DNA from: Nitrospinae bacterium bin107
Lineage (GTDB): Bacteria > UBA8248
Direction of reading: 5' to 3'
Assembly: GCA_002238965.1 (NCBI GenBank)
Contig: MPNJ01000007.1
Span: forward strand, 62,001 to 126,000
Length of the DNA: 64,000 bases
Both the position numbers and the translations under genes were made by a program. The notes under the pieces are model-generated. The model was not told where the DNA came from and searched no databases. It saw only the letters and a list, made by a program, of their open reading frames with translations. This document shows positions 6,407-12,500 of the stretch, one piece after another; positions within the stretch are counted from its first letter, which is position 1; each line of letters begins with the position of its first letter.

Positions 6407-6524
6407 CGGGCGCCTTCAATCATTTCGGTTCTGAACACCTGAAATTCCGAGATTTCGCGGATTCGTGGTATCATCTGAGGTCACGAGAGTTCCAAGCCGT
6501 CTAAACACCTGAGGAGCCGTGCAA

Positions 6525-6923
6525 ATGCGATATCCCCTGCTTATGTTTGGTTTGGCCTTGCTCGCCGCCGTCCTGGTTTTGCCGCAGGCCGCGACCGCCC
6601 TGGAAGGGTGGAAGCCCTATGACGCCAAGGCGTTCGCCCAGGCCCAAAAGGATGGAAAGACGATTTTCGTAGCCGTCCACACCGACTGGTGAGGGACGTG
6701 CAGGCAGCAGGTGCCGCTGCTTCAGTCACTGGTTAAAGAGAAGGAATTCGCAACCGCCGCCGCGTTCGAGTTGGACTACGACACCCAGCGCGATTTAGCG
6801 ACGGCGCTCGGCGTTCGCTGGCAGTCGACGATCATCGTCTTCAAGGGCGCGCAGGAAAAAGGCCGCTCGACGGGCGACGTGGATATTGCGAGCATCCGGA
6901 GCCTCATGGAACGCGCGCTATAG
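6525..6923 (+). CDS. Secreted thioredoxin-like selenoprotein (in-frame TGA = Sec)
   Basis: A 132-residue thioredoxin-fold protein read through one in-frame TGA. The ATG at 6525 opens a signal peptide (MRYPLLMFGLALLAAVLVLP, probable cleavage near ATA-LEG). After FVAVHTDW the TGA (6690-6692, codon 56) is followed by G-T-C-R-Q-Q-V-P-L-L, so the active site reads W-Sec-G-T-C in place of the usual WCxxC. The same frame stays open to a TAG at 6923 and keeps thioredoxin features (a buried ELDYDTQ strand, TIIVFKG, then G and a final helix). The usual cis-proline site reads QSTI. A SECIS-like hairpin follows the TGA. Expected role: thiol-disulfide or peroxide chemistry in the periplasm. The alternative is a Cys-to-stop mutation. 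The selenium genes selA, selB, selC and selD are not in this window. Confidence 0.8.
6702..6722 (+). promoter_or_regulatory. Candidate bacterial SECIS hairpin
   Basis: Directly after the in-frame TGA (6690-6692), AGGCAGC (6702-6708) pairs with GCTGCTT (6716-6722) in a 7-bp stem with one G-U pair and a 7-base loop AGGTGCC. The conserved loop guanines (6710-6711) lie 17-18 bases past the TGA. This agrees with the known spacing and loop type of bacterial SECIS elements, which recruit SelB. It lies inside the coding region, as bacterial elements do. Confidence 0.7.
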
Positions 6924-9079: not shown

Positions 9080-9459
9080 GAGCGCCTCGTTTTTTATGGA
9101 TATAAATACATAAACAATGTAGCATGATTGATGATTATTGAAAGAAAAAACAGTTGGCAGCGCAATAAAGACGAAAGCCTGTTCGTCAGGTTGCGGTTTT
9201 TGGTCCTGTGCGGTTTTCTCTTTGGTGTGCGATGGTTTCACGCATGTCCCGGACGTATGCCGGTTTGCGTTTTACCGTTGATTCGCACTAGAATTTTATG
9301 CGGCACAATAATCAGACACGGCGGCTTGAGAGTCGCCACACGTTCAGTCTGCAGCGAACTCGCAGGGGCCTTGGGAGAGGGGTTGGACTTTCTCTTGCGC
9401 GAAGGCTCCATTTTTTCTTCGAATCGACCGGCTTACACAACGAGAACAGGGGGCCAACC
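9080..9459. other. Intergenic region between divergent galT-like and proX-like genes
   Basis: This 380-base gap is AT-richer than its surroundings. Open frames through it have no recognisable protein. It holds the promoters for both directions; the best rightward candidate is listed separately. Confidence 0.6.
9265..9294 (+). promoter_or_regulatory. Possible promoter of the proX-like operon
   Basis: TTGCGT (9265-9270) and TAGAAT (9289-9294) are spaced by 18 bases, about 165 bases before the binding-protein gene. The boxes are imperfect. Confidence 0.35.
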
Positions 9460-10497
9460 ATGAAATCCAGAGTATTGCTTATCTTCGTTTTGACTCTCGC
9501 TATCGGGGCGTCAGCGCTCGTATCCCTCCCCAGCAAGGCCGATGCCGCCTGCAGTGTCCGCATCGGCGACCTGAACTGGGACAGCGCCAACTTTCACGAT
9601 CAGGTGACCGCGTTCATCCTGGAGCACGGCTACGGCTGCCGGGTGCGGCTCATCTACGGCGGCACGCTGCCGATCATGACGGCCCACTACGAGGGCAAGA
9701 ACGACATTGTCATGGAGCTTTGGTATGACAACGTGAAGGCGCAGTATGACCCCGCCATGAAGAGCGGCAAGGTCAAACAAGTGGGGGTCAACACGCCCGA
9801 CAGCATACAGGGCTGGTTCATCCCGCGCTTCGTCCAGAAGGCGAATCCGGGTCTCAAGTCGGTCTTCGACCTGCCCAAATACAAGCATCTCTTCAAGGAC
9901 CCCGAAGAACCCTCCAAAGGCCGGTTCGTGAACTGCATCCCCGGCTGGTCCTGCGAGGTCATCAACACGGTGAAGCTGCGCGCCTACGGGCTGGAAAAAC
10001 ACTTCACCAATTTCCGGCCCGGCTCGGGCGGCGCGCTCGCGGCGGCCATCAAGGGCGCGTATCTCAAGAAAAAACCCGTACTCGCCTATTACTGGGCGCC
10101 GACGCCGCTACTGGGACAACTCGATCTCGTCCAGCTCGAAGAGCCTGCATGGAACGAGGCCGACTGGAACGTTGTAGTGAAACACATGGACGCGCTCAAG
10201 AAGGGCGGAATGGAGGCTTTGGGGAACCCGAAGAAAGCGACAGCCTACCGGACGGCGGAACTGCCGAAATCGGTCACGACAAAGTTCGCGGCCAAGCATC
10301 CCGAGATCGTCGCCTTCATCGAGAAATACACGCTCCCGTCGAAAGAGGTCTCAAAGATGCTGGCCTATCTCGAGACCAAGGCAGGCGGCGACGCCAAAAC
10401 CACCGCCATCCATTTCCTGAAGACCAACAAGGTCTGGAAGAAGTGGGTTCCGGCCGACGTCGCGAAAAAGATCGAGGAGGCGCTCAAATCTGCGTAA
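9460..10497 (+). CDS. proX: ABC transporter substrate-binding protein, glycine betaine/choline type
   Basis: Periplasmic receptor of a ProXWV/OpuA-type importer for quaternary amines such as glycine betaine. The 345-residue product has a signal peptide (MKSRVLLIFVLTLAIGASAL to about residue 28, cleaving near ADA-ACS). The body follows the OpuAC pattern: SVRIGDLNWDSANFHDQVTA, then MELWYDNV and the aromatic-rich lobes that cage the ligand. The ATG at 9460 follows AGGGGG and excludes a poorly conserved N-terminal extension. Permease and ATPase follow directly, so this is a complete operon. The precise ligand is inferred from the family. Confidence 0.85.
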   Translation: MKSRVLLIFVLTLAIGASALVSLPSKADAACSVRIGDLNWDSANFHDQVTAFILEHGYGCRVRLIYGGTLPIMTAHYEGKNDIVMELWYDNVKAQYDPAMKSGKVKQVGVNTPDSIQGWFIPRFVQKANPGLKSVFDLPKYKHLFKDPEEPSKGRFVNCIPGWSCEVINTVKLRAYGLEKHFTNFRPGSGGALAAAIKGAYLKKKPVLAYYWAPTPLLGQLDLVQLEEPAWNEADWNVVVKHMDALKKGGMEALGNPKKATAYRTAELPKSVTTKFAAKHPEIVAFIEKYTLPSKEVSKMLAYLETKAGGDAKTTAIHFLKTNKVWKKWVPADVAKKIEEALKSA

Positions 10498-10558
10498 GCC
10501 GCGCCCGCGCGATGCTTTTCACTCGTGAAGCAGCGTTAAATCCCGGGGAGGTCCGCCC

Positions 10559-11467
10559 ATGATGAACTTTATCCGCGGACTGTTCCCGGAGTGGGCGGTC
10601 GAGTGGCCAAAGAATCTCAACCTGCCGCTCAACAAGTGGACCAACGATTTCGTGGAGTGGCTGGTCACCGAGTACGGGGTCATCTTCGAGACCGCCTCGG
10701 ACGCCATACTCGTGGTGCTGGTGGGCATGGAGCGCTTCCTGCGCGACCTCCCGTGGGTTGTCGTGTTCCTCGGCGTGGGTGCGCTCACCTTCTTCTCCAG
10801 TGGGCGCAAATGGGGCCTGACCGCGCTCGTGGCCGCCTGCATGTTCTTCATCGGCCTCACCGATCCCAGGCTCTGGGATTTGTCGATGATGACCCTTTCG
10901 GTGATGCTTGTCTCCACCCTCATCTGCATCGGAGTTGGCGTTCCGGTCGGTATCGCGATATCGAGAAACGACCGGATGCGCGACATGGTGCTGCCCGCAC
11001 TCGACCTGATGCAGACCATGCCGAGCTTCGTCTATCTCATTCCGGCGATCATGCTCTTCGGCCTGGGCGCGGTGCCCGCCGTCTTCGCCACGGTGATCTA
11101 CGCCATCCCGCCGGTGATACGCCTGACCGACTTGGGCATCCGCCTGGTGGATGAGGACATCGTCGAAGCTTCCGACGCCATGGGCGCGAGCAAGAGGCAG
11201 AAGCTCATTCGCGTGCAGATACCGATGGCGCTGCCCAACATCATGCAGGGGGTCAACCAGACGACGATGATGGCGCTCGCGATGGTGGTGATCGCCTCGA
11301 TGATCGGAACGCGGGGGCTCGGCACCGAGGTGCTCATCGGCCTCCAGCAGCTCAACGTCGGCCGCGCGCTCGAAGCCGGCGTGGCCATCGTGCTGCTCGC
11401 CATCGTCATGGACCGCGTCACACAGGCCTACGGCGGGCGTTTCATCCGCATGGACGGGAGGGGCTGA
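10559..11467 (+). CDS. proW: ABC transporter permease, ProW/OpuAB type
   Basis: Integral membrane subunit of the same importer, 302 residues. After an amphipathic N-terminus there are about seven hydrophobic stretches. The ATPase-contacting EAA loop is visible as EASDAMGASKRQKLIRVQIP. ALDLMQTMPSFVYLIPAIML is the typical ProW signature. The start ATG (or the adjacent ATG at 10562) follows GGGGAGG with good spacing. The ATPase begins 4 bases after the stop. Confidence 0.9.
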   Translation: MMNFIRGLFPEWAVEWPKNLNLPLNKWTNDFVEWLVTEYGVIFETASDAILVVLVGMERFLRDLPWVVVFLGVGALTFFSSGRKWGLTALVAACMFFIGLTDPRLWDLSMMTLSVMLVSTLICIGVGVPVGIAISRNDRMRDMVLPALDLMQTMPSFVYLIPAIMLFGLGAVPAVFATVIYAIPPVIRLTDLGIRLVDEDIVEASDAMGASKRQKLIRVQIPMALPNIMQGVNQTTMMALAMVVIASMIGTRGLGTEVLIGLQQLNVGRALEAGVAIVLLAIVMDRVTQAYGGRFIRMDGRG

Positions 11468-11471
11468 GCCG

Positions 11472-12500
11472 ATGGCGCTGATCGAGGTGCGAAACGTCTA
11501 CAAGATATTCGGAACGGGACGCGCGCTGGACACGGCGCTCGACATGGCCCAAACGGGAGCTGAGAAGAACGACGTGCTGGTCGAGACCGGCTGCACCCTG
11601 GGCTTAAAGGACGTGAGCCTCTCCGTCGAGCGAGGTGAGATATTCGTGGTCATGGGCCTTTCGGGTTCGGGAAAATCGACCCTGATCCGCCACATCAACC
11701 GGCTGATCGACCCGACGACGGGCCAGATACTCGTCGACGGGCGGGACGTTCTCGAATTCTCGACCGAGGAGTTGCTCGCCTTCCGGCGGGGCGCCGTGAG
11801 CATGGTCTTTCAGCGTTTCGCGCTCTTTCCGCACTTGACGGTCATAGAGAACGTGGGCTACGGCCTGGAAGTCCAGGGGGTGGAACCTGCCGAGCGGCGC
11901 CGGCGCGCGATGCGGTGGATAGAGGACGTGGGCCTCATCGGCTATGAAAACGCCTACCCGGCCCAGCTATCGGGCGGCATGCAGCAGCGCGTGGGTCTGT
12001 CGCGCGCGCTGTGCACGGACCCCGAGATTCTCCTCATGGACGAGCCATTCAGCGCCCTGGATCCGTTGATCCGCAAGCAGATGCAGGAACACCTCATCGC
12101 GCTCCAGCGCGACCTCAAGAAGACCATCGTGTTCATCACCCATGATCTGGACGAGGCGCTCAAGCTGGGCGATGACGTCGCCATCCTGAAGGACGGCGTG
12201 ATCGACCAGATAGGCGGGCCGGAGGAGATTCTGCTCAACCCGGCCACCGAATACGTGCGCGAGTTCGTGCGCGACGTGAAGCGGGGCCGCGTGGTGACGG
12301 CGGCCTCCATCATGACGCCGCCGAAAGGCGACGCGAACGGGCCAACCGTTTCGTACGACACCGTGCTTCAGGACATGCTGCCCAAGTGTATCGATAGCGA
12401 TGCGCCGCTGCGGGTGGTGGACGAGGCAGGAGCCGTCGTCGGCGCCGTTTCACGCAGAACCCTCCTTCGCGGACTGGCGGACCATGGCGTGAAAAAGTAG
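11472..12500 (+). CDS. proV: ABC transporter ATP-binding protein, ProV type
   Basis: ATPase of the glycine-betaine-type importer, 342 residues. Walker A is GLSGSGKST, the signature is LSGGMQQRVGLSRAL, and Walker B is ILLMDEPFSALDP, followed by the H-loop FITHD. The long N-terminal insert before strand 1 (GTGRALDTALDMAQTGAEKN) is typical of ProV. After the nucleotide-binding domain, residues from about 270 onward form one short CBS-like region (MTPPKG, then LRVVDEAGAVVGAVSRRTLL); only one repeat is clear, whereas OpuAA usually has two. It is the last gene of the operon. Confidence 0.92.
   Translation: MALIEVRNVYKIFGTGRALDTALDMAQTGAEKNDVLVETGCTLGLKDVSLSVERGEIFVVMGLSGSGKSTLIRHINRLIDPTTGQILVDGRDVLEFSTEELLAFRRGAVSMVFQRFALFPHLTVIENVGYGLEVQGVEPAERRRRAMRWIEDVGLIGYENAYPAQLSGGMQQRVGLSRALCTDPEILLMDEPFSALDPLIRKQMQEHLIALQRDLKKTIVFITHDLDEALKLGDDVAILKDGVIDQIGGPEEILLNPATEYVREFVRDVKRGRVVTAASIMTPPKGDANGPTVSYDTVLQDMLPKCIDSDAPLRVVDEAGAVVGAVSRRTLLRGLADHGVKK

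What the first reader, a model, noticed from the sequence alone, without database searches (positions are those of the whole stretch)
6525..6923. Unannotated thioredoxin-like selenoprotein with a W-Sec-G-T-C active site
Seen directly: a single continuous frame from ATG 6525 to TAG 6923 broken only by TGA at 6690. The TGA sits exactly where the first cysteine of WCxxC should be, and the resolving cysteine (GTC) remains. There is a signal peptide and a SECIS-like hairpin (6702-6722) at proper spacing with loop guanines. Ordinary gene finders truncate this gene to 70 residues after the stop. From family knowledge, bacterial Sec is inserted at UGA by SelB bound to a nearby hairpin. Inference: a periplasmic Sec-thioredoxin, whose low-pKa selenol would give high reactivity.
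Basis: partly seen in the sequence, partly recalled or inferred. Interest (0 to 1): 0.9.

Follow-up and report, generated by a model that had tools for sequence, protein, structure and literature searches.

The report
Probable exported selenocysteine thioredoxin
A short gene that looks broken by a stop codon most likely makes a small exported redox protein with selenium in its active site; related bacteria keep the same codon at that place.

Summary
The frame 6525-6923 is open except for TGA at codon 56, where the first cysteine of W-C-x-x-C belongs. The genome has selA, selB, tRNA-Sec and selD. Fourteen of the 18 held genomes of the phylum carry the gene, 15 copies; every copy has TGA at that codon and none has Cys. 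Codons after the TGA are under purifying selection. A hairpin fitting the bacterial SECIS rules follows, with one mostly silent compensatory pair, but its stability alone is not exceptional. Selenocysteine insertion is very likely, unproven chemically.

In all eight loci of Cys relatives that I opened, a CcdA-type membrane electron carrier gene follows directly. The Sec gene has no CcdA beside it in six loci checked, but all 18 genomes match the CcdA domain elsewhere. Best reading: an exported selenothioredoxin, reduced through CcdA, that reduces oxidised thiols outside the cytoplasm. The Sec copies form one group among Cys relatives, suggesting one Cys-to-Sec change. Sec-thioredoxins (UxxC, PF00085) are a known kind; this is a new variant.

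The parts
6525..6923 (+). Coding sequence of the probable selenothioredoxin, 132 aa, one Sec codon
   Evidence: 15 of 15 orthologous copies keep the frame with one TGA
6511..6516 (+). Shine-Dalgarno-like GAGGAG, 8 nt before the ATG
   Evidence: read by eye
6525..6599 (+). Signal peptide, residues 1-25, probable cleavage after ATA (inferred)
   Evidence: sequence, by eye; A25 nearly invariant; first 20 residues modelled at pLDDT about 50
6690..6692 (+). UGA codon 56, read as selenocysteine; first residue of the U-G-T-C motif
6699..6701 (+). Codon 59, resolving cysteine, present in all 15 copies
6702..6722 (+). bSECIS-like hairpin, 7 bp, loop AGGUGCC at 6709-6715
   Evidence: stability not significant alone
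6822..6830 (+). Codons 100-102 Q-S-T, where thioredoxins have x-cisPro-T
   Evidence: alignment

Best explanation
The gene encodes an exported thioredoxin whose attacking residue is selenocysteine. SelB with tRNA-Sec(UCA) reads UGA 6690-6692 with the help of the hairpin at 6702-6722. The protein leaves the cytoplasm by its signal peptide and folds as a thioredoxin with a U56-G-T-C59 active site and Ser in place of the cis-proline. The selenolate of U56 attacks an oxidised substrate, C59 resolves the intermediate, and the resulting selenenylsulfide is reduced by a CcdA-type membrane carrier that brings electrons from cytoplasmic thioredoxin. The substrate is probably an extracytoplasmic disulfide, or a thiol peroxidase or methionine sulfoxide reductase. 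Shown here: the frame, the conserved UGA, the Sec machinery, the fold by prediction, the missing cis-Pro by alignment, CcdA linkage in Cys relatives. Inferred: Sec insertion itself (I put it at about 0.95), export, CcdA as donor, the substrate.
For: Sec machinery in the own genome; selB over cut-off in 14 of 18 genomes of the phylum. In-frame TGA at the same codon in 15 of 15 copies from 14 of 18 genomes, no Cys version. dN/dS over 76 codons after the TGA: median 0.35, range 0.02-0.72, in 100 of 105 pairs that could be scored. UGA is an ordinary stop here: 6 of 10 long window ORFs examined end in TGA. Hairpin: in the 9 copies outside the genus, pair 16-27 is A-U in 6 and C-G in 3, through Arg AGG/CGG and Pro CCU/CCG codons in 8 of 9 (Ser UCU in one); Leu codon +7 is UUG in 8 of 8 copies that have Leu there, against 7% of Leu codons in ten window ORFs. 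Fold: block means of pLDDT 90-97 from residue 31 on; best solved match 5zf2, Z 18.9, 1.1 A over 103 residues, whose paper reports a thioredoxin fold and DTNB and insulin assays (passages of PMC6636751). A CcdA-type gene directly downstream in 8 of 8 Cys loci opened: annotated in 5, an ORF in 3, of which one was scanned and passes DsbD_TM (L101). DsbD_TM matches in 18 of 18 genomes of the phylum, over cut-off in 16; the own-genome protein scores 45.7 bits. CcdA-Etrx-MsrAB2 pathways are described in Streptococcus pneumoniae (abstract and headings of PMC3914529).
Against: No chemical proof of Sec. Hairpin: shuffle z 0.00 to -1.42; codon-redraw p below 0.05 in only 7 of 15 genes, 0.055-0.07 in 7, 0.30 in one; the scan gives -5.0 and -5.4 kcal/mol for two of seven Cys relatives, more than the weakest Sec copy (-4.4), the other five being 0 to -1.8. 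Covariation is one pair, possibly one or two events; 10 of 500 shuffles reach the score, and 385 of 500 reach the count of pairs changed on both sides; over all 15 copies the shared helix is weak (-3.4 kcal/mol) because the window's genus pairs in another register. Three genomes with the gene show no selB over cut-off (G004, G013, G015) and G014 only a partial one at a contig edge (drafts, 67-91% complete). Four genomes with selB lack the gene (G002, G007, G009, G011; 91-96% complete). CcdA is not beside the Sec gene in the six loci whose neighbours were listed and is present also in genomes without the gene.
Confidence: 0.72

Rival explanations
1. UGA is a true stop and the gene is a decaying or mis-assembled thioredoxin.
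For: Table 11 gives only a truncated 70-aa ORF; the hairpin alone is not significant; four genomes of the phylum lack the gene.
Against: The same TGA codon in 15 of 15 copies from 14 genomes, no other stop inside, no Cys version; purifying selection after the TGA; full Sec machinery.
Confidence: 0.03
2. It is a selenothioredoxin but works as an oxidase or isomerase (DsbA/DsbC-like) or as a selenol peroxidase, not as a CcdA-fed reductase.
For: The cis-Pro position is Ser or Thr in all 15 copies; no CcdA beside the Sec gene in six loci; in peroxiredoxins that position is not Pro either (passage of PMC2757866).
Against: No helical insertion in the model's secondary structure; Pfam's best family is Thioredoxin; Cys relatives sit with CcdA in 8 of 8 loci opened; the resolving Cys is kept in every copy.
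Confidence: 0.2
3. The UGA is read as cysteine or tryptophan by a suppressor or by mischarged tRNA-Sec.
For: No tool here tells Sec from other read-through products.
Against: UGA ends 6 of 10 long window ORFs examined; the Trp before it is TGG in all 15 copies; SelA and SelD are present.
Confidence: 0.03

Closest known systems
Sec-containing thioredoxin (Trx, PF00085, UxxC), under 'experimentally verified' in Table 1 of PMC13188914
   Same: PF00085 domain, UxxC active site
   Different: This one has a probable signal peptide and no cis-Pro. The verified protein's sequence was not compared; its paper (PMC5094351) is not held.
Cys 'thioredoxin family protein' encoded just before CcdA on plasmids of Rhizobium, Methylobacterium, Mesorhizobium, Sphingomonas and Paraburkholderia
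   Same: 35-38% or 39% identity to the window protein, QST loop
   Different: CPTC or CPVC instead of UGTC; CcdA adjacent
Trxlp of Edwardsiella piscicida (5zf2, 5zpv)
   Same: closest solved fold, Z 18.9; QST loop
   Different: Cys protein, reported as translocated into host cells (passage of the abstract); no such role is suggested here
Etrx1/Etrx2 with CcdA and MsrAB2 of Streptococcus pneumoniae
   Same: extracytoplasmic thioredoxin-fold proteins in CcdA pathways (abstract and headings)
   Different: lipoproteins; sequences not compared here

Membership tests
Bacterial selenoprotein | In-frame UGA conserved at a redox position across orthologues | tested here: met
   15 of 15 copies, 14 genomes
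Bacterial selenoprotein | selA, selB, selD and tRNA-Sec in the genome | tested here: met
   tRNA-Sec model passes in 5 of 14 control genomes, so the second program's call matters
Bacterial selenoprotein | bSECIS hairpin: G in first two loop positions, loop 16-37 nt after UGA | tested here: met
   loop AGGUGCC, 16 nt after the UGA; rule from PMC13188914
Bacterial selenoprotein | Hairpin more stable than chance | tested here: inconclusive
   z 0.00 to -1.42; codon-redraw p under 0.05 in 7 of 15 genes
Bacterial selenoprotein | Selenium in the protein | not testable with these tools
   needs 75Se labelling or mass spectrometry
Thioredoxin (PF00085) | Profile above curated cut-off | tested here: met
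   41 bits against 23.5, window protein
Thioredoxin (PF00085) | Thioredoxin fold | tested here: met
   predicted model
Classical thioredoxin (TIGR01068 equivalog) | Score above the curated cut-off | tested here: not met
   49.3 bits against 96.8
Classical thioredoxin (TIGR01068 equivalog) | cis-Pro before the third core strand | tested here: not met
   by alignment: Ser or Thr in all 15 copies
CcdA-linked extracytoplasmic thioredoxin | CcdA gene adjacent | tested here: not met
   absent beside the Sec gene in the six loci listed; present in 8 of 8 Cys loci opened
CcdA-linked extracytoplasmic thioredoxin | CcdA in the genome | tested here: met
CcdA-linked extracytoplasmic thioredoxin | Signal peptide | not tested
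   read by eye only; no predictor

The most novel reading that the evidence does not exclude
With selenolate and thiolate in the active site and Ser in place of the cis-Pro, the protein may bind a metal or a [2Fe-2S] cluster through Se outside the cytoplasm, a natural counterpart of the human TRX1 P75S/T/A variants that take up a cluster (passage of PMC6210436). It would then be a metal-handling or redox-sensing selenoprotein rather than a plain reductase.
Probability: 0.08. Interest if true: 0.75.

Novelty: new variant of a known kind. Interest (0 to 1): 0.45.

Why it matters
It adds a probable exported selenothioredoxin, whose frame table 11 cuts to 70 residues, in a lineage for which one full-text search of the held open-licence library found no paper with both 'selenoprotein' and 'Nitrospinota'. 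It offers a Cys-to-Sec pair (Sec group beside Cys relatives) to ask what selenium buys in an extracytoplasmic thioredoxin that also lacks the cis-proline. The existing annotation of the 14 genomes was not seen; they may need correcting.

Tried and rejected
Rejected: reassigned UGA code (6 of 10 long window ORFs end in TGA). Rejected: sequencing error (15 of 15 copies). Of no use: a scan of GGCAGNTGCC over the own genome gave 48 hits against 61 for the reversed control, and the pattern does not match the window's own hairpin. A constant neighbour of the Sec gene was sought and not found: SDR genes upstream and a PGA_cap gene downstream in the window; genes like sdhA and sdhB upstream in L031, L035 and L037 (Pfam for both in L031 and for the second in L037); other genes in L036 and L033. 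Literature searches on Sec-thioredoxins (15 of 45 listed), selenoprotein plus CcdA (2 papers) and sponge symbionts (3 papers): listings and abstracts' starts only, nothing on this family in them. PMC1088965 and PMC9312934: passages only; both list thioredoxin UxxC, neither passage names this lineage. In NCBIfam no family passes its cut-off for this protein. Of 5 genome-contig loci, L055-L058 have the contig lengths of genomes already counted and were not counted again; L059 (25 residues matched) was dropped. One search translated some loci on the wrong strand and was replaced for the Sec genes; one search likewise. Beyond the own phylum, 5 of 386 genomes matched at E 1e-10, none with a TGA; in G080's phylum 2 of 24 matched at E 1e-15, both Cys. 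No signal-peptide predictor or co-folding was available.

Full report
Observation. The frame from ATG 6525 to TAG 6923 is open except for TGA at 6690-6692, codon 56, giving W55-U56-G-T-C59. Table 11 alone yields a 70-aa ORF from GTG 6711. The hairpin 6702-6722, 7 bp with loop AGGUGCC, is the best fold in 3 of 4 stretches tried; in 6685-6740 another fold wins, and no stretch is unusually stable (z 0.00 to -1.42).

Machinery. The own genome (4.37 Mb, 60 contigs, 95.9% complete) has selB at 385.7 bits against a cut-off of 242.25, tRNA-Sec at 75.9 bits against 47 (the same model passes in 5 of 14 control genomes) with anticodon UCA by ARAGORN, selA at 576 bits, upstream of selB on contig 14, and selD at 333.9 bits. 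selD has its own in-frame TGA, in U-G-S-K, the UxxK motif that Table 1 of PMC13188914 gives for SelD, followed by a hairpin. UGA remains a stop: 6 of 10 long window ORFs examined end in TGA.

Conservation. Among 61 genomes searched with the protein, 14 genomes of the own family gave 15 copies with exactly one TGA and no other stop; every other row has no stop inside and is far weaker (E 7.9e-12 or worse). A profile of 14 copies over the class and the phylum (the same 18 genomes) found the same 15 and no Cys orthologue. Identity to the window protein is 45-84% for the 13 other rows aligned. Genome G012 has two tandem copies, the second with W-U-W-Q-C. Four genomes lack the gene: G002, G007, G009, G011, all with selB over cut-off; G004, G013 and G015 have the gene but no selB over cut-off, and G014 a partial one. 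Over 76 codons after the TGA, dN/dS was scorable in 100 of 105 pairs, median 0.35, range 0.02-0.72; distant pairs are near saturation. Four named records, three titled Nitrospinota bacterium and one bacterium, have the contig lengths of four of these genomes. Some isolate names suggest sponge samples; that is recalled, not tested.

Hairpin. In the nine copies outside the window's genus a helix 14-19/24-29 with loop AGUU or AGGU pairs in 96.3% of cells, and pair 16-27 is A-U in six, C-G in three. The changes lie in Arg (AGG/CGG) and Pro (CCU/CCG) codons in eight of nine, Ser UCU in one, so they are mostly silent. Ten of 500 shuffles reach the covariation score; 385 of 500 reach the count of pairs changed on both sides; the change may be one or two events. 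In the window's genus the 5' strand keeps its distance from the UGA but pairs three bases further on, so the fold shared by all 15 is weak (-3.4 kcal/mol). With synonymous codons redrawn at window frequencies, the best bSECIS-type hairpin is as stable in under 5% of draws for 7 of 15 genes, 5.5-7% for 7, and 30% for one. Copies are related, so these are not independent. The same scan on seven Cys relatives gives 0 in four, -1.8, -5.0 and -5.4 kcal/mol, against -4.4 to -10.6 in the Sec copies: a tendency with overlap.

What protein it is. PF00085 passes (41 bits against 23.5); the thioredoxin equivalog TIGR01068 does not (49.3 against 96.8). The predicted model (14-row alignment, mean pLDDT 85.3) is a thioredoxin; the closest solved chain is 5zf2 at Z 18.9, the next rows at about 16. 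Where thioredoxins have x-P-T, all 15 copies have Ser or Thr before the Thr: QST, QTT or, once, RTT (placed by the alignment). [quoted passage not shown]

Cys relatives. The window protein finds 108 plasmid records; six, chosen from the top rows for variety, were opened. The profile finds five matches outside the phylum among 386 genomes at E 1e-10, all without a TGA; G080 stands out at 137 bits, the others at 42-56. One more turned up in G080's phylum, 2 of 24 genomes in all. In all eight loci opened (six plasmids, G080, G388) a CcdA-type gene starts within 10 bases of the thioredoxin's end or overlaps it: annotated in five, an ORF in L101, L106 and L132. Pfam was run on two of the eight, L101 and L107; both pass DsbD_TM. 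Seven have QST and L132 has QAT. A tree of 24 rows puts the 15 Sec copies in one group (92/91; 93% of 200 bootstrap trees; below the program's 95/80 star), next to the two Cys genes of G080's phylum. With eight Cys rows and one long outgroup this suggests, without proving, one Cys-to-Sec change.

Partner. No CcdA lies beside the Sec gene in the six loci listed, but all 18 genomes match DsbD_TM, 16 over the cut-off. In the own genome it is a 298-aa protein of 45.7 bits after a purA-like and before an acylphosphatase-like ORF (neighbours named by eye). Genomes without the Sec gene have it too, so co-occurrence does not single it out.

Mechanism. Most likely: an exported selenothioredoxin, reduced through CcdA, that reduces oxidised thiols outside the cytoplasm. 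Sec insertion is strongly supported; export and relay are inferred. Trx with UxxC is in the list of verified prokaryotic selenoproteins (Table 1 of PMC13188914, seen); I could not compare that sequence. Hence a new variant of a known kind.

Noticed in passing
L019:1528-1530: selD of the own genome carries an in-frame TGA (U-G-S-K) with a hairpin downstream, so SelD is itself a likely selenoprotein.
   Followed up: partly
L037, minus strand, UGA codons at 1720-1722 and 1305-1307: Genome G012 has two tandem Sec-thioredoxins; the second has W-U-W-Q-C and R-T-T in place of Q-S-T.
   Followed up: partly
L031, L035, L037: In these loci the Sec-thioredoxin closely follows genes like succinate dehydrogenase or fumarate reductase flavoprotein and iron-sulfur subunits.
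   Followed up: partly
9298-12500: A set that reads by eye as a glycine betaine/choline-type ABC transporter (binding protein, permease, ATPase) lies between a yidC-like region and mnmE/mnmG-like genes.
   Followed up: no
L101:2169-3341 and L132:7-906: Upstream of the Cys thioredoxin-CcdA pair in both genomes of a second phylum lies a gene for a CxxCH-rich, multihaem-cytochrome-like protein (by eye).
   Followed up: no
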